DNA from: Epilithonimonas hungarica
Lineage (GTDB): Bacteria; Bacteroidota; Bacteroidia; Flavobacteriales; Weeksellaceae
Direction of reading: 5' to 3'
Length of the DNA: 64,000 bases
NCBI RefSeq assembly: GCF_900102265.1
Contig: NZ_FNBH01000004.1
Location: 248,001-312,000, forward strand
Below the pieces are notes generated by a model. The model saw nothing but the letters and a program-made list of their open reading frames with translations. It searched no databases and was not told the DNA's origin. Each line of letters starts with the position of its first letter. The stretch's first letter is position 1. Of the stretch, positions 7,954 to 16,620 are shown piece by piece. The position numbers were made by a program, and so were the translations under genes.

Positions 7954-9804
7954 TTAAAAAAATTGCCAAGAGTGCTTAAATATTGTTTTAAAATGAGTAT
8001 CCATTTCAGAAATTTTTTTATCAGAATTAAGTTTTAAAATATTAATAATATTTTCTGAATTAGCTTCTAAATCATAAAAAATATCTTCTTTTGAAAATTT
8101 ACTTTTATCTTCCAATAACAGATAATTAATAACACAAAAAGAAAGTAATTTTCCTACATACCATTCTAAATGACTCCACAAATTAGAATATTCGCTAATG
8201 AATTTACCACTATGAACAATCTGATTACGGTGCAGATATATTCGGTCTAATTGGTAAGAAATCGATTCAGATGAAGCTTCTACTTTATCAAGCCAAAATT
8301 TGACACTAGCTTCCGAATTAAATTTATTATTTAACTGTACAAATTTTTTACATAAAAGATTTGAATTTGCTTTTAAAACATTATAAGGGTCGTTAGTTTG
8401 ATCATATCTTTTAGCTAAAAAATCAAAATAATCTTTTAATCCAATAGAATTTATATTAAAGACATTTGTGTAAATACCCAAACTATCAAGATTATTATTG
8501 TTCCAGTTTGCTTCAACATATCTCATTGCAAATGCAGTTAATTCTCTTCCAATTGATCCCGTAGATAAAGATTTTGCGACAAAATGTTGAATACTGGAAA
8601 TATCATTTTCTTTCATCCTGTATGGCAATAAGGTTTCGAGTGATGTCCATAATAATGAGAGAGAATTTTCAATAGATTTGGATCCTAATGCAAGATTATA
8701 ATAATATAAGCTATCACTTATTTGTGGAATGTAAGGTAGGTTTGAATTTTCTGGTAGATTTAAGCCGTAACATGTAGAAATCTTATTTAAAGTTTCGAGT
8801 AATGAACTTTTTCTCTTTGAAACATTAATTGGATCTAAAATGAAATTTGAGATCTGAAATTTATATTCTCCCTTTAATCTCCAGTAAATCCTATCAAAAA
8901 AATCATTGAGAGGTGAGAGATCCATTCTATCTTTTGATATTACATAGAATTTTAGACACATTTCATACAAATTCCTGATATAATTATGAGGATCTAATGT
9001 ATTACAATGTATTTCTAGTGCATCTTCATACTCTTCAATTTTCCGGTCAGAATAAAATCTATTAATTAATTCTTGTGAAGAAGTTGATTTATAGACTATA
9101 CTATTTTCATCAAGATATTTTTTTATTGTTTCAATTTCAAAGCTTTCTTTTTTTGAAATTAGTAGGAAAACATAATCCTGTTTATTTCCATTGAAAAAGT
9201 TTGCAATTCTCAAATGTGTTTTTAAGCCACCTCTATTTTTTGATATATATTTGAATGATATGTTACTGACACTAGTAGTAGAATATCCTATATTTAAAAT
9301 GTGAGGAATCAAACTATCAATTAGAATATCCATTTTGTCAGACACCCTATTAAATTTGCTGGAACTTAAATCTATTAATTTTAATTCTTCATAAATGTTC
9401 AAAAAGTAGCTATTTTCAATTTGTTTGCACTGAATAATAGCATGATTATATAGACTAAAAAGTCTAGAACTATCATCTTTTAATTTATCAATTTGAATTT
9501 TTTTGTAAAATTCAACAATGTCAGGAAAATATTTATTTAGAATATAATCATTAACAATGCTAGAAGAAATTACAGGTGATTTTGCCTCTTTTAAAAGACT
9601 AATTAATCGATTAATCGATTTTGTTCTTTTTATTGATTGTCTTGATACTTCTCTAATCTCGTAGACCAGTGTATATCCATTTGTTGTTCTGTGTTTTTTT
9701 GATATTACTTCCTGATGATCTACTCTTTGTTTAATTTTTTCTATAAAGTACTTCGATAAGTCAGTATGTGAAAAATTCCAATTTTGATTTTTTGCAACCC
9801 ACAT
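7954..9804 (-). CDS. 616-aa protein with C-terminal HEPN (Apea-like) motif
   Basis: Large soluble protein, very AT-rich in codon use, with many Lys, Asn and Ile. No signal peptide. The C-terminal third carries RNQIVHSG: Arg526, Asn527 and His531 form an Rx4H motif, the catalytic signature of HEPN ribonuclease domains, and the context (LDRIYLHRNQIVHSG) resembles the Apea-like HEPN family. The N-terminal ~400 residues are mostly helical and unrecognised. HEPN proteins of this size are frequent in phage-defence and RNA-cleaving systems, but no partner gene such as a MNT nucleotidyltransferase lies beside it. The neighbours are repeats, suggesting an accessory gene. HEPN assignment is from the motif only. 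Confidence 0.65.
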   Translation of the reverse strand: MWVAKNQNWNFSHTDLSKYFIEKIKQRVDHQEVISKKHRTTNGYTLVYEIREVSRQSIKRTKSINRLISLLKEAKSPVISSSIVNDYILNKYFPDIVEFYKKIQIDKLKDDSSRLFSLYNHAIIQCKQIENSYFLNIYEELKLIDLSSSKFNRVSDKMDILIDSLIPHILNIGYSTTSVSNISFKYISKNRGGLKTHLRIANFFNGNKQDYVFLLISKKESFEIETIKKYLDENSIVYKSTSSQELINRFYSDRKIEEYEDALEIHCNTLDPHNYIRNLYEMCLKFYVISKDRMDLSPLNDFFDRIYWRLKGEYKFQISNFILDPINVSKRKSSLLETLNKISTCYGLNLPENSNLPYIPQISDSLYYYNLALGSKSIENSLSLLWTSLETLLPYRMKENDISSIQHFVAKSLSTGSIGRELTAFAMRYVEANWNNNNLDSLGIYTNVFNINSIGLKDYFDFLAKRYDQTNDPYNVLKANSNLLCKKFVQLNNKFNSEASVKFWLDKVEASSESISYQLDRIYLHRNQIVHSGKFISEYSNLWSHLEWYVGKLLSFCVINYLLLEDKSKFSKEDIFYDLEANSENIINILKLNSDKKISEMDTHFKTIFKHSWQFF

Positions 9805-13029: not shown

Positions 13030-14784
13030 TTATTTATAAAAAATCTTTGTGAAACTATCTTTTTCTAATTTGTTTAATGAAAAGTCGAAGTCAGAATCTT
13101 CTTTTTTATCTACTAAAACGGCTCCAAGTTCAACTATCAATTCATTAAAAATTAACGGATTTGACCATTGCTGATATAATGCCTGCGTTGCCAAAGTAGA
13201 AATTTCAGAATTTCCAGAAACGTGAGAATGACCAGCTCCAAAATTCAAAATTACAAAACATTGTGTTGCGTCATTTGGAATCAAAATTCCTAAAATATTT
13301 TGACGTTGAACCGAAGTGCATTTGGCTTCTAATAATAAATTATTCGGATTCATCATATAATTATAATCTATCTCATCACCTTTTCCTATTACTATTTTGT
13401 AACCAGCCTCTGAAGAACCTCCAAACACATTACAAATTACTAATGTTGGAAATGATAAGCCTCTGTTGGCATACAAATATTCGGTGGCTCCATTTGGCGC
13501 ATCAGTAATATCGCCTGAATACATCAAATTACCTTCGTTTTGGTTATACTGAGCATTCCATCCAATTTTTCCACCTATATTTAAACCTGAAAGATCCAAA
13601 TCATTAGCTCCCCATTTGTTTTCCCAATAAATTCCGACTGCCATTTTTTTAGCATAAAAACGGGTTCCGGTTGGTATATTTCCAACAAACATTTTCTCGG
13701 AAGTTGGTAATGCATAGTCAATATCTTTTGGAATGAAAATTCGTTTTCCAGAAAGATTGAAACGAGTTTTCATATATTCTAAAATGAAATAATAATTGCT
13801 CCAAACTTCATCTTTGCTTTTGTTTTTTTTCACCCAAGACTTTCCATTTCGTATTCTATAAACAAACGCGTTTTGCCCATTCATTCTCGAATAACAAGCT
13901 GAAAGTGCTTTGAACAATGCAAAAGGTGTAGCGTTATCCAACCAATGTTTCTCATTTTCAGATAAGAGAGAATTGGTAACATCATTCAACGGATTACTTA
14001 TCAATGGCTGATGAAGTGTTTTTGATAATTTGCTTATTTTGTTGATTATCGTTGGGTTTTTGTCCTTAAAAGCTAAAAATATAGGTTTGAAACGATTAAA
14101 AATAGTTGCTAGTTTTTCCAATCCGAATGTCTCAAAAGCTTTTGTAGGATTATATTTTGTTGATTTTATAGCTTCTAACACTTCGTTATTTTTAATTAAT
14201 AAAGTTGAGTCAGTCGCTTTGAAAACAATATATCGCAAAAATTCAGTTGGGTTTTTTGGATAAATTTCAAACAAATCTGCAATTTTCACAACTGCTTCTT
14301 TGTTTTTAACGGTTTCATCTCCCATAAATTGATAATTTAATTCTTTGGTTAAAACAAATAACAAATCATCAATTGTTTCTTCTTTCAAAGCGATTCCTGA
14401 TTGTAATAATTCTAAGGCTTTTTTCGTTAATTCTTCTTTAGAATAAGCTTTAATGATTTTAAATGTCAGTTTGTTTTCAGGCACTTCCAACACTTCATTC
14501 GGAATATACATTTCATCTTGAAAATTACTTCCATAAGTAGAAAAATAATGTTTAATCTGATCCAAAAGTAATTCGAACCGAGATGATTTTTTGATTTTTG
14601 ACCACGATTTATGAAATGTTGAATTCAGAGCTTCAGAACTTAATTTTTCTTTAGCATAAAAATTTAAAATTTGGTTTTTAGCCCAAACTGCATTAGGCTC
14701 AATTACGATTCCTAAATCGGAAACAAATGCTTTTTCATTCGATTCTTTTGCAATAACTGCATTGAATAATTGTAGTGTTTTCAT
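13030..14784 (-). CDS. 584-aa protein of unknown function, possible TerD-like C-terminal domain, linked to a tRNA-like RNA
   Basis: No signal peptide or membrane segment. Residues 1 to about 330 are mostly alpha-helical, with a conserved-looking core (PTEFLRYIVFKAT, FNRFKPIFLAFK). From about 385 the sequence becomes beta-rich: ANDLDLSGLN near 396 and YSGDITDAP near 421 resemble the Asp-rich calcium-binding strands of TerD-family proteins (DFDLDAS and GD motifs), but the match is by eye and tentative. The 175-bp leader holds three related hairpins and, upstream on the same strand, an unusual tRNA gene. The genomic arrangement recalls Ro60 proteins and their tRNA-like Y RNAs, although I see no TROVE or vWA signature. 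Ends in a strong terminator. Function unknown. Confidence 0.75.
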   Translation of the reverse strand: MKTLQLFNAVIAKESNEKAFVSDLGIVIEPNAVWAKNQILNFYAKEKLSSEALNSTFHKSWSKIKKSSRFELLLDQIKHYFSTYGSNFQDEMYIPNEVLEVPENKLTFKIIKAYSKEELTKKALELLQSGIALKEETIDDLLFVLTKELNYQFMGDETVKNKEAVVKIADLFEIYPKNPTEFLRYIVFKATDSTLLIKNNEVLEAIKSTKYNPTKAFETFGLEKLATIFNRFKPIFLAFKDKNPTIINKISKLSKTLHQPLISNPLNDVTNSLLSENEKHWLDNATPFALFKALSACYSRMNGQNAFVYRIRNGKSWVKKNKSKDEVWSNYYFILEYMKTRFNLSGKRIFIPKDIDYALPTSEKMFVGNIPTGTRFYAKKMAVGIYWENKWGANDLDLSGLNIGGKIGWNAQYNQNEGNLMYSGDITDAPNGATEYLYANRGLSFPTLVICNVFGGSSEAGYKIVIGKGDEIDYNYMMNPNNLLLEAKCTSVQRQNILGILIPNDATQCFVILNFGAGHSHVSGNSEISTLATQALYQQWSNPLIFNELIVELGAVLVDKKEDSDFDFSLNKLEKDSFTKIFYK

Positions 14785-14803
14785 AATTTTTTACATATAA
14801 GTG

Positions 14804-14834
14804 AGGAGTAATTTGGAAATTTATAGGAACTCCT
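14804..14834 (-). ncRNA. Leader hairpin A (UCCUAU motif)
   Basis: In the RNA, AGGAGU pairs with ACUCCU as the outer stem. Directly after the 5' arm comes UCCUAU, then a short AT stem. It is the unit nearest to the start codon of the 584-aa gene (20 bp away). The complementary strand contains TATAGGAACT, shared with units B and C. Confidence 0.6.
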
Positions 14835-14864
14835 TTTACCTATTGTTTTGTTAAAAAAAAGCGG

Positions 14865-14892
14865 GAAGTAATTTACCAAATATAGGAACTTC
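14865..14892 (-). ncRNA. Leader hairpin B (UCCUAU motif)
   Basis: Outer stem GAAGU / ACUUC, then UCCUAU, inner stem AUUU-GGU-AAAU, and a single unpaired U on the 3' side. The stem bases differ from units A and C but pairing is kept. Confidence 0.6.
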
Positions 14893-14911
14893 GTTTGCTT
14901 TAATATCGATG

Positions 14912-14950
14912 GAAAGTATCATTTTTAAAAGAAATTGTATAGGAACTTTC
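14912..14950 (-). ncRNA. Leader hairpin C (UCCUAU motif)
   Basis: Outer stem GAAAGU / ACUUUC (6 bp, perfect), then UCCUAU, then a longer AT-rich inner stem with a mismatch. It is the unit closest to the tRNA, ending 10 bp from its encoded CCA. Confidence 0.6.
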
Positions 14951-14959
14951 TTTATCGAT

Positions 14960-15060
14960 TGGTGACGCAGACAGGAATCGAACCTGTGACACACAGCTTA
15001 GGAACTTTTTTTGCCCAAAGCGAAAAGTAGTTGTTGCTCTACCAACTGAGCTACTGCGTC
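14960..15060 (-). tRNA. tRNA-Arg(CCU)-like gene with a 25-nt hairpin in the anticodon loop
   Basis: A 101-nt gene that is canonical everywhere except the anticodon loop. Acceptor GACGCAG / CTGCGTC pairs perfectly; D arm GCTC-AGTTGGTA-GAGC; T arm ACAGG-TTCGATT-CCTGT; discriminator A and encoded CCA. The anticodon stem ACAAC / GCTGT has one A-C mismatch (30-40). Its loop is 32 nt instead of 7. It contains a 25-nt hairpin closed by ACTTTT / AAAAGT. Removing exactly these 25 nt leaves TTCCTAA, a normal loop with U33, anticodon CCU (Arg, AGG codon) and A37. Standard bacterial tRNAs lack such insertions and the length is far too short for a group I intron. It may be a precursor needing processing, a tRNA mimic, or a decayed gene. 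Confidence 0.8.
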
Positions 15061-15072
15061 GAATTGTTGATG

Positions 15073-15080
15073 CAAAGTAA
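15073..15080 (-). promoter_or_regulatory. Probable -7 promoter box of the tRNA-like gene
   Basis: On the minus strand TTACTTTG, seven of eight matches to TAnnTTTG, followed by 12 nt and the first base of the tRNA. This would start transcription a few bases before the mature 5' end. Confidence 0.45.
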
Positions 15081-15148
15081 TTACATAAGTACGCAATCTT
15101 TTTGCGTAGAAAAATTATTTTAAATATTTTTGATAAAATTTTATTAAA

Positions 15149-15481
15149 ATGATTTTAGAACAACTGAAAAATTCTCAGGAAACAATTGATTTTAAAGACG
15201 TGATTGCTTTTATTGATGACAATTATGATTTCACGCCAACGAAATTCACGAATGGAAATATAGTTAATGAAGCTAATCAAAATAATGGTTCTTGCAAAGT
15301 TTTCAGTTTTGCGAAATTGAATCAACTTTCGAAAGATGAGACTTTAGCTTTATTCGGTGATTTTTATAGAACAGATGTTTTAAAAAATCCTGAAGGAGTT
15401 GATCATCAGAATATCAGAAACTTTATCGAGTTTGGCTGGGATGGAATTTTGTTTGAAGGAGAGGCTTTGATAAAAAAATAA
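15149..15481 (+). CDS. HopJ type III effector-like protein
   Basis: 110 residues, matching in length and sequence style the HopJ (PF08888) family, e.g. DFKDVIAFIDDNYDFTP and FTNG near residue 30-36. The family was named from a Pseudomonas secreted effector but is widespread in free-living bacteria without type III secretion, where its role is unknown. No signal peptide. It is divergent from the tRNA-like gene with 88 bp between them, and monocistronic; a palindromic dispersed repeat lies downstream. Confidence 0.8.
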   Translation: MILEQLKNSQETIDFKDVIAFIDDNYDFTPTKFTNGNIVNEANQNNGSCKVFSFAKLNQLSKDETLALFGDFYRTDVLKNPEGVDHQNIRNFIEFGWDGILFEGEALIKK

Positions 15482-15606: not shown

Positions 15607-16620
15607 ATGTCATCAAATAAAAACGCATTAATCCGCTACAAAACACTTGACAAATGTCTGAAGAATAAGTATAAAAAATATACACTCGAAGATTTGATTG
15701 ACGAATGTTCCGAAGCTTTATTTGAATTTGAAGGCAAAGAATCTTTTGTGAGCAAAAGGACAATTCAGTTGGATTTGCAGAACATGCGAAGTGAGAAGTT
15801 TGGTTACGAAGCGCCAATTGAAGTTTACGAAAGAAGATTTTATCGTTACAGCGACCCGGATTACAGTATTCATAATATTTCCGTCAATGAAAATGATTTG
15901 AAGGCCATGAATAACGCAGTTCAGATTCTGAAACAATTCAAGGATTTTTCGATGTTCAAGGAAATGAATGGAGTGATTCAGAAATTGGAAGATTCGATTC
16001 AATCGACCAATCAAAAATCAATCATTCATCTTGATAAAAATGAACAGTTGAAAGGTCTTGAACATATTGATATTCTCTACGAAAATATTCTGAACAAAAA
16101 GGTTCTGAAGATCCTTTACAAAAGTTTCAAAGCCAGAGAATCCAATCAGTACATCGTTCATCCACAATTATTGAAAGAATATAATAACCGTTGGTTTTTG
16201 ATTTGTTGGCATAAAAATAAGATCATGAATCTCGCCTTAGACAGAATGGAGGAAATCACAATTGAAGATAAAATCGAATATATTGATAAAGATTTCAATG
16301 CGGACAGATATTTTGGTGAAGTGATTGGCGCAACAGTTTCCGAAACGCAACGGCCGCAGAATGTAATTTTTTTCATCGCACAGAAACATGCACCTTATGT
16401 GAAAACCAAACCTTTTCATCATTCCCAGGAGATCATCAAGGAAGATGAAAGTGGAACGACTTTCAAAATCTGTGTTCAGCTGAACTTCGAATTAGAGAGA
16501 ATGATTCTTGGAATGGGAGAGTTTATCAAAGTTCTGACCCCTAGAAAATTAAAACAAAGAATTGCTAAAAGCCTGAAGCTGGCCAGTGAAAATTATACTT
16601 CTGATCAATCTGAAAATTAA
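15607..16620 (+). CDS. WYL-domain transcriptional regulator
   Basis: 337 residues. N-terminal winged helix-turn-helix (about 1-75), then a WYL domain whose core reads NNRWFLICWHKNK near residues 195-208 (Phe replaces the usual Tyr) and a C-terminal WCX-like segment (LERMILGMGEFIKVL). WYL proteins are ligand- or nucleic-acid-sensing regulators, often linked to DNA damage or phage-defence genes. Here the immediate neighbours are hopJ upstream and, convergently, a DEAD-box helicase: the two stop codons overlap (16617-16620). Regulon not deducible. Confidence 0.88.
   Translation: MSSNKNALIRYKTLDKCLKNKYKKYTLEDLIDECSEALFEFEGKESFVSKRTIQLDLQNMRSEKFGYEAPIEVYERRFYRYSDPDYSIHNISVNENDLKAMNNAVQILKQFKDFSMFKEMNGVIQKLEDSIQSTNQKSIIHLDKNEQLKGLEHIDILYENILNKKVLKILYKSFKARESNQYIVHPQLLKEYNNRWFLICWHKNKIMNLALDRMEEITIEDKIEYIDKDFNADRYFGEVIGATVSETQRPQNVIFFIAQKHAPYVKTKPFHHSQEIIKEDESGTTFKICVQLNFELERMILGMGEFIKVLTPRKLKQRIAKSLKLASENYTSDQSEN

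What the first reader, a model, noticed from the sequence alone, without database searches (positions are those of the whole stretch)
14960..15060. tRNA-Arg(CCU)-like gene with a 25-nt hairpin inserted in the anticodon loop
Everything outside the loop is canonical: perfect acceptor, D and T arms, A73 and an encoded CCA. The anticodon loop is 32 nt long and contains a hairpin closed by ACTTTT / AAAAGT. Deleting exactly 25 nt restores the seven-base loop TTCCTAA with U33, anticodon CCU and A37. Bacteria are not known to have protein-spliced tRNA introns, and 25 nt is too short for a self-splicing intron. The RNA is therefore a precursor cut and rejoined by an unknown route, a tRNA-shaped non-coding RNA, or a decaying gene (one A-C mismatch in the anticodon stem).
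Basis: partly seen in the sequence, partly recalled or inferred. Interest (0 to 1): 0.9.

Follow-up and report, generated by a model that had tools for sequence, protein, structure and literature searches.

The report
tRNA mimic with rearranged hairpin insert
What looks like a tRNA gene with a small intron is one of a conserved set of tRNA-shaped RNAs in flavobacteria that carry, in place of an anticodon, the same small hairpin found in rows beside them, most likely a docking site for the protein encoded next door.

Summary
It is probably no intron-bearing or decaying tRNA-Arg(CCU): the genome has an ordinary one elsewhere, and the 'CCU' belongs to AGUUCCUA, which recurs in three stand-alone hairpins between this RNA and the next gene (584 aa). 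A matrix built from other genomes' stand-alone hairpins finds these three and the insert (15.5-32.9 bits; next best 3.0) in the 64 kb. Of 54 homologous upstream regions examined, 46 carry such an RNA; its stems covary. In the 28 of 29 parsed, the hairpin's strands are in swapped order: circularly permuted relative to the stand-alone copies. A second hairpin family, likewise swapped, sits in tRNA-like RNAs of 7 of 8 further loci, beside distant MXAN_6230/SCO0854-family proteins. RtcB RNA ligase lies upstream in 48 of 52 loci, not in the window. Best reading: a Y-RNA-like tRNA mimic whose hairpin docks the neighbouring protein, topologically the inverse of YrlA. Anatomy is well supported; binding and function are inferred.

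The parts
14960..15060 (-). tRNA-like RNA (98-nt body 14963-15060 plus encoded CCA): acceptor, D, T arms and a short anticodon stem
   Evidence: such RNAs in 46 of 54 loci; pair covariation
15004..15028 (-). 25-nt insert in the anticodon arm: ACUUU-U-C-GCU-UUG-GGC-AAAA-AAAGU, the locus's hairpin motif with its two strands in swapped order; followed by UCCUAA (14998-15003)
14905..14959 (-). stand-alone hairpin 1 (outer AUCGAU/AUCGAU, internal AAA opposite C, inner GAAAGU/ACUUUC, then UCCUAUA)
   Evidence: (15.5 bits)
14858..14901 (-). stand-alone hairpin 2 (outer AAAGC/GCUUU, internal AAA opposite C, inner CGAAGU/ACUUCC with its last pair open, then UCCUAUA)
   Evidence: 24.4 bits; weak single-sequence fold, z -0.46
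14797..14843 (-). stand-alone hairpin 3 (outer AUAGGU/ACUUAU, internal AAA opposite C, inner AGGAGU/ACUCCU, then UCCUAUA), ending 12 nt before the start codon; its stem is the commonest one over the loci
   Evidence: (32.9 bits)
13030..14784 (-). 584-aa protein gene; C-terminal part TerD-like by inference; presumed partner of the hairpins
   Evidence: (no Pfam match)
15061..15148 (.). intergenic region between divergent genes, presumed to hold the promoter of the RNA and the 584-aa gene; rtcB lies at this place in some relatives
15149..15481 (+). HopJ-family small protein gene, conserved neighbour
15607..16620 (+). WYL/WCX-domain regulator gene, conserved neighbour of the RNA-repair cassettes

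Best explanation
The locus encodes a Y-RNA-like tRNA mimic. Shown by comparison: an intact tRNA body, in native order with ends at the acceptor stem, carries in place of its anticodon a hairpin that also stands alone in tandem copies in the presumed 5' leader of the next gene (three here; two or three by the strict count in the 54 loci), with the two strands of the hairpin in swapped order inside the tRNA. Inferred: the hairpin is a recognition site for the co-encoded 584-aa protein (as the Y-RNA stem is for Ro60); tRNA-end enzymes process the tRNA body, which then brings tRNA-handling enzymes (RtcB ligase, PNPase or tRNA-modifying enzymes), or an anticodon nuclease, to the protein as tether or bait; the leader hairpins let the protein regulate its own mRNA or are further Y-type RNAs. 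In most relatives it follows rtcB in an RNA-repair cassette beside a WYL regulator; here rtcB itself is missing.
For: Motif identity of insert and stand-alone hairpins; 46 of 54 loci; 26 named tRNA-like pairs 99.7% standard with 8 pairs changed on both sides, 0 of 500 shuffles on four of five measures; stand-alone hairpins 54 both-side changes against a mean of 13 in shuffles, 0 of 500; swapped strand order fits 28 of 29 tRNA-likes. A second motif family behaves the same way: of 9 motifs inside tRNA-likes the best complement is upstream in 8 and tied in 1; of 30 stand-alone motifs it is downstream in 28 and tied in 2. Neighbours RtcB in 48 of 52 and WYL. YrlA-type permuted tRNA mimics near real TROVE genes in the same genus.
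Against: No RNA or protein data: expression, processing and binding are untested. The 584-aa protein shows no TROVE homology. Both structure predictions failed (pLDDT 38 and 31). The tRNA-like RNA was not found in 8 of 54 loci while stand-alone hairpins are in all 54, so the tRNA part is dispensable in some species. The window lacks the adjacent rtcB. The insert hairpin is not in the minimum-energy fold of the single RNA, and its inner pairs hardly vary in A4, so they give no covariation there. One measure (further pair types) is reached by 96 of 500 shuffles.
Confidence: 0.7

Rival explanations
1. A spliced pre-tRNA: the 25 nt are a protein-spliced intron, RtcB (a tRNA ligase in archaea and animals) rejoins the halves, giving tRNA-Arg(CCU).
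For: In the window, leaving out 25 nt gives a 7-nt loop UUCCUAA; rtcB lies upstream of the homologous loci in 48 of 52.
Against: Only 3 of 28 parsed RNAs give a 7-nt loop, the other 25 give 6 or 8-22 nt, and no anticodon is constant; the hairpin also stands alone outside tRNAs; a second, different hairpin sits in the anticodon arm in another lineage; no PF01974 endonuclease; the window lacks the neighbouring rtcB; a normal tRNA-Arg(CCT) exists.
Confidence: 0.05
2. A mobile hairpin (REP-like element) jumped into an extra tRNA gene, which is now a decaying pseudogene.
For: Several copies of the hairpin lie next to the tRNA. One homolog, L124, looks damaged in its D arm and insert by eye.
Against: 4 of 6 genome-wide pattern matches lie at this locus, and the reversed-pattern control gives 3; the tRNA body keeps its pairs in 29 sequences; the inserted copy is permuted, which simple insertion does not give; same arrangement in two families of the order.
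Confidence: 0.04
3. The elements act only in cis: the tRNA-like and the hairpins are leader structures by which the 584-aa protein represses or stabilises its own mRNA, with no separate RNA product.
For: All elements lie in the presumed 5' leader; the stem nearest the start codon is the commonest one over the loci.
Against: The conserved acceptor stem, T and D arms suggest release by tRNA processing; a leader site would not need a whole tRNA (inference).
Confidence: 0.15
4. It is an ordinary Y RNA of a diverged Ro60 protein.
For: Same operon logic (RtcB, WYL, tRNA module).
Against: No TROVE match for the protein; RNA ends lie at the acceptor, not in the Y stem.
Confidence: 0.06

Closest known systems
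YrlA-type bacterial Y RNA with Ro60/Rsr (TROVE), e.g. Salmonella rsr-yrlBA-rtcBA
   Same: A protein-binding stem joined to a tRNA-like module with D, T and acceptor arms, in an RNA-repair setting with RtcB (PMC7790460, PMC8394870, PMC11472068: passages read)
   Different: In YrlA the RNA ends form the stem and the tRNA part is circularly permuted; here the tRNA part is in native order with ends at the acceptor, and the stem is permuted and closed inside the anticodon arm. The partner is not a TROVE protein by sequence.
MXAN_6230/SCO0854 family RING-domain proteins (NF041916)
   Same: The 746-772-aa proteins beside the second set of tRNA-like RNAs match this model below its curated cut-off (97-128 bits against 600); the 584-aa protein is linked to it only through G081
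   Different: The 584-aa protein has no family match of its own, so no RING was seen; none of the held papers contains these protein names
Protein-spliced tRNA introns of archaea and eukaryotes
   Same: Insert in the anticodon loop; RtcB nearby in relatives
   Different: No consistent exon junction, no PF01974 match in this genome, hairpin also found alone
tmRNA and other bacterial tRNA mimics
   Same: tRNA elbow and acceptor kept, anticodon replaced
   Different: ARAGORN reports no tmRNA in the window

Membership tests
Bacterial Y RNA (YrlA type) | encoded with a TROVE/Ro60 protein | tested here: not met
   584-aa protein: no Pfam match, hhalign to TROVE probability 0.5%; own genome has no PF05731 match
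Bacterial Y RNA (YrlA type) | tRNA-like module with D, T and acceptor arms | tested here: met
Bacterial Y RNA (YrlA type) | 5' and 3' ends pair to form the protein-binding stem; tRNA part circularly permuted | tested here: not met
   ends are at the acceptor stem, the stem is internal; contrast L010
Bacterial Y RNA (YrlA type) | binds its protein partner | not testable with these tools
   needs binding assays
Bacterial Y RNA (YrlA type) | located in an RNA-repair operon with rtcB | tested here: inconclusive
   RtcB motif upstream in 48 of 52 homologous loci, not in the window itself
Intact tRNA-Arg(CCU) | 7-nt anticodon loop with conserved anticodon | tested here: not met
Protein-spliced tRNA intron | consistent splice junction and splicing endonuclease | tested here: not met
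MXAN_6230/SCO0854 family (NF041916) for the 584-aa protein | score over the curated cut-off | tested here: not met
   no match at E up to 0.1; link only through G081 (E 2e-6) and weak hhalign (probability 49%)

The most novel reading that the evidence does not exclude
A new class of tRNA-mimic ribonucleoprotein: a TerD-containing, non-Ro60 protein family recognises a hairpin embedded, in circularly permuted form, in the anticodon arm of an otherwise normal tRNA body, making an uncleavable bait or a tether for tRNA-repair enzymes. Two hairpin families show the same arrangement beside apparently related proteins, the mirror-image topology of YrlA.
Probability: 0.5. Interest if true: 0.87.

Novelty: new variant of a known kind. 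Interest (0 to 1): 0.78.

Why it matters
It adds a second architecture for joining a tRNA to a probable protein-docking stem, beside a protein outside the TROVE family by sequence, so it tests whether tRNA mimicry in RNA-repair operons is about the shape of the tRNA rather than Ro60. It also warns that 'tRNA with an anticodon-loop intron' calls in flavobacteria can be conserved non-coding RNAs, and gives a ready set of loci, with two different hairpin families, for binding and nuclease experiments.

Tried and rejected
Tried without result: AlphaFold2 on the 584-aa protein and on its C-terminal 240 residues with two sequences each (pLDDT 38 and 31), so no fold search was run. Profile comparison of the 584-aa family with TROVE and of the NF041916-like pair with TROVE: nothing. 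PDB sequence search: only two 26-residue stretches, E 0.033 and 0.17. Rfam at E up to 1 on the 371-nt region: tRNA only. The R1 model also matches ordinary tRNAs, so its 395-of-395 tally is not a count of tRNA-likes; only hits of 98-121 nt in the printed list were read as such (G000, G064, G121, G130, G360 twice, G471 twice, G491); the list was cut near 60 bits, and Flavobacterium-type RNAs of sampled genomes such as G037 and G405 were not in it but were found. An early regex for hairpins mixed in coding-sequence noise and was replaced, which in turn misses copies with TGTTCC (seen by eye in L098, L137, L139). An early tRNA-like regex missed 14 of 31 loci and was loosened, which then missed 4 of those 31.

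Limits of the counts: the 3' strand was chosen as the best-pairing one within reach, which favours pairing, and the shuffles do not correct for that choice; the pattern itself demands the swapped order, so 28 of 29 is a fit, not a blind test; the downstream search span (75-80 nt) is longer than the upstream one (60 nt).

Considered and rejected: intron, mobile-element insertion, decaying tRNA, group I intron (far too short, from general knowledge).

Full report
What is there. On the minus strand, 15060 to 14960, lies a complete tRNA body with encoded CCA and a 25-nt hairpin (15004-15028) in the anticodon arm. Between it and the start codon of a 584-aa gene (13030-14784, minus) are three further hairpins (14905-14959, 14858-14901, 14797-14843). 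The genome has its own ordinary tRNA-Arg(CCT) at G000:C9:178542-178613. Of 29 distinct ordinary tRNA gene sequences examined (the genome has 42 tRNA hits), 2 encode CCA, an initiator-like tRNA-Met and tRNA-His; the tRNA-like does too. None of its 28 homologs printed shows an encoded CCA.

The insert belongs to the hairpin family. A position matrix made from 76 stand-alone hairpins of other genomes, the window left out, was run over both strands of the 64 kb. The four best hits are hairpin 3 (32.9 bits), hairpin 2 (24.4), the tRNA insert (20.5) and hairpin 1 (15.5); the fifth is 3.0. A matrix of the short 3' strand alone does not separate the sites so clearly (same call). A consensus pattern finds six places in the whole genome, four of them here, against three for the reversed control pattern. 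The supposed anticodon CCU is the CCU of the conserved AGUUCCUA.

The strands are swapped. Stand-alone hairpins read, 5' to 3': outer stem, AAA, inner stem ending AGU, UCCUAUA, loop, ACU inner stem, C, outer stem. In 54 upstream regions 145 of 145 stand-alone motifs fit this with at least 8 of 11 pairs; the 5' internal loop is AAA in 134 of 145 and the 3' one C in 144 of 145; 36 distinct stems show 54 both-side changes against a mean of 13 in 500 shuffles, none of which reached it (the 3' strand was chosen as the best-pairing one within reach, which favours pairing). In the tRNA-likes the order is ACUUU, U or C, C, GCU, short loop, GGC, AAAN-like, AAAGU, UCCU: the same two strands, the other end closed. 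28 of 29 sequences fit a pattern written in this order; the one that does not (L091) differs in the internal-loop letters.

The tRNA body is conserved. A search of 296 genomes of the family found the 584-aa protein in 100: the window's own, 95 full-length others at 63-68% identity, and four that are fragments, split or very weak (G187, G218, G322, G081). 97 of the 100 belong to genus g39, taken to be Chryseobacterium because the named record L105 is C. potabilaquae (inference). I examined 54 upstream regions, chosen by best score and availability rather than at random, and L105 may duplicate a G-handle genome: 46 have at least one tRNA-like RNA, 8 have none, all have 2 or 3 stand-alone hairpins by the strict count. 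In 29 aligned tRNA-likes (27 distinct), the 26 pairs that I named are 99.7% standard, with both-side changes in 5 of 7 acceptor pairs, 2 of 2 anticodon-stem pairs and 1 of 5 T-stem pairs; no shuffle of 500 reaches the observed value on four of five measures (96 of 500 do on the fifth, further pair types), and sliding the partner drops pairing to 36-49%. The insert's own pairs are nearly invariant in this set, so they give no covariation there. In G360 and G471, from another family, there are two tRNA-likes per locus, and the insert stem reads ACUAU or ACUGU against AUAGU or AUGGU. One stand-alone hairpin in each of these loci holds a T-arm look-alike in its loop (by eye).

A second hairpin family does the same. 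In G491 a locus with a similar WYL regulator, and an RNA ligase and a kinase (named by eye), has a 746-aa protein distantly matching NF041916 and two tRNA-likes whose insert is built on GGUCAA-8 nt-UACUU. A search of 296 genomes of the phylum for NF041916 gave matches in 13: seven long ones, all in g16, and short TerD-type ones in the other six. Of these 8 loci (seven plus G491), 7 have the motif inside a tRNA-like; the eighth, L223, has a tRNA-like without a recognisable motif. For 9 motifs inside tRNA-likes the best complement lies upstream in 8 and is tied in 1; for 30 stand-alone motifs it lies downstream in 28 and is tied in 2. One search adds one point for a following NATT, one search does not.

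Genomic setting. In 48 of 52 loci an RtcB C-terminal motif lies in the upstream flank (1.5 kb; 3 kb for L105); it is not seen in L075 (the window), L078, L137 and L139. In the window's own genus, 6 of the 12 genomes with a WYL ortholog of 88% identity or more have WYL, HopJ and, divergently, a gene like the Chryseobacterium-type rtcB. In G022 and G016 this is followed by two nucleotidyltransferase-like genes and a 478-aa gene, then the same MarR and receptor-like genes that flank the window cassette (names partly by eye; G016 has one extra small ORF). None of the 12 shows a tRNA T-arm or a hairpin cluster in the 1.5-kb flank; further out, G005 has the 3' part of a tRNA-Arg(TCT)-like gene just after rtcB. 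So the window holds a different cassette at the same site. The one RtcB match in the genome lies elsewhere, next to a release-factor-like gene (by eye PrfH).

Relation to Y RNAs. Four relatives in the genus (G005, G015, G016, G022) have real TROVE genes. About 2 kb downstream of the TROVE gene in G015 and G016 lies an RNA with T arm, closed acceptor hairpin and D arm on a stem formed by its ends; for G015 the fold shows this with z -3.17. That is the YrlA topology: a structural paper describes the bacterial Y RNA as a circularly permuted match to tRNAs (PMC11472068, passages read), and a review gives YrlA's basal stem as holding Rsr and its tRNA-like part as binding PNPase (PMC8394870, passages read). 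The window RNA joins the same two kinds of part, cut open at the other place.

The protein. No Pfam, NCBIfam, PHROGs or PADLOC match. A profile of the family matches a 692-aa protein of G081 at E 2e-6; that protein matches NF041916 at E 2e-139, and NF041916 positions 564-653 match a protein of the window's genome that looks like TerD (TerD named by recall). The N-terminal parts align weakly (probability 49%). TROVE homology has no support. Structure prediction failed twice.

Mechanism. Shown: conserved RNA anatomy, strand swap, locus and neighbours. Inferred: transcription and processing, protein binding, and the role as tether, bait or regulator. In Salmonella the rtcBA operon responds to tRNA fragments, and the authors suggest that Rsr and Y RNA could act in tRNA decay or that YrlA's tRNA-like part could inhibit an anticodon nuclease (PMC7790460, passages read); a phage survey describes TROVE proteins as a platform for RNA repair with a tRNA-like partner (PMC7824862, passages read). 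A tRNA whose anticodon is replaced by a protein-bound hairpin would suit either role.

Prior art. Searches for Y RNA, YrlA, Ro60, TROVE, RtcB, WYL, TerD, SCO0854, Chryseobacterium or Flavobacterium with tRNA-like RNA, and anticodon-loop insertions listed no paper whose title or abstract start describes this RNA; most listed papers were not opened. The key analysis of RNA-repair systems (Burroughs and Aravind 2016) and the Y RNA reviews and structure paper are not held, so earlier mention there cannot be excluded.

Noticed in passing
L010:1416-1554 and L004 about 1460-1600 (G015, G016): YrlA-type RNA with a circularly permuted tRNA module near a TROVE gene in the window's own genus; that stretch is matched by no Rfam family.
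   Followed up: partly
L171:2077-3989, L172:11549-13573, L109-L112, L114: Rows of 5 to 16 extra tRNA genes of mixed specificity near RNA-repair or TROVE genes, possibly spare or decoy tRNAs.
   Followed up: no
L137 and L139, last part of the leader: Stand-alone hairpins whose loop holds a T-arm look-alike (CCGGTTCGATTCCGG; ATGGTTCGATTCCAT), by eye.
   Followed up: no
L204:4200-4460 (G047): A chain of partial and permuted tRNA-like pieces between the WYL regulator and a slipin-like, RNA-ligase-like, kinase-like gene row (by eye).
   Followed up: no
L206:5520-5575 (G005): A 3' part of a tRNA-Arg(TCT)-like gene just after rtcB at the site orthologous to the window cassette, perhaps a trace of integration.
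   Followed up: no
window 7954-9804 (-): 616-aa ORF without a Pfam or NCBIfam match.
   Followed up: no
window 14858-14959: The conserved GAAGTTCCTATA resembles an arm of the yeast FRT site (recalled, no call); probably coincidence.
   Followed up: no
G221, G323, G187, G471, G218, G322: The 584-aa gene carries a stop or is split in several genomes (G221, G323, G187, G471), and only C-terminal remnants matched in G218 and G322.
   Followed up: no
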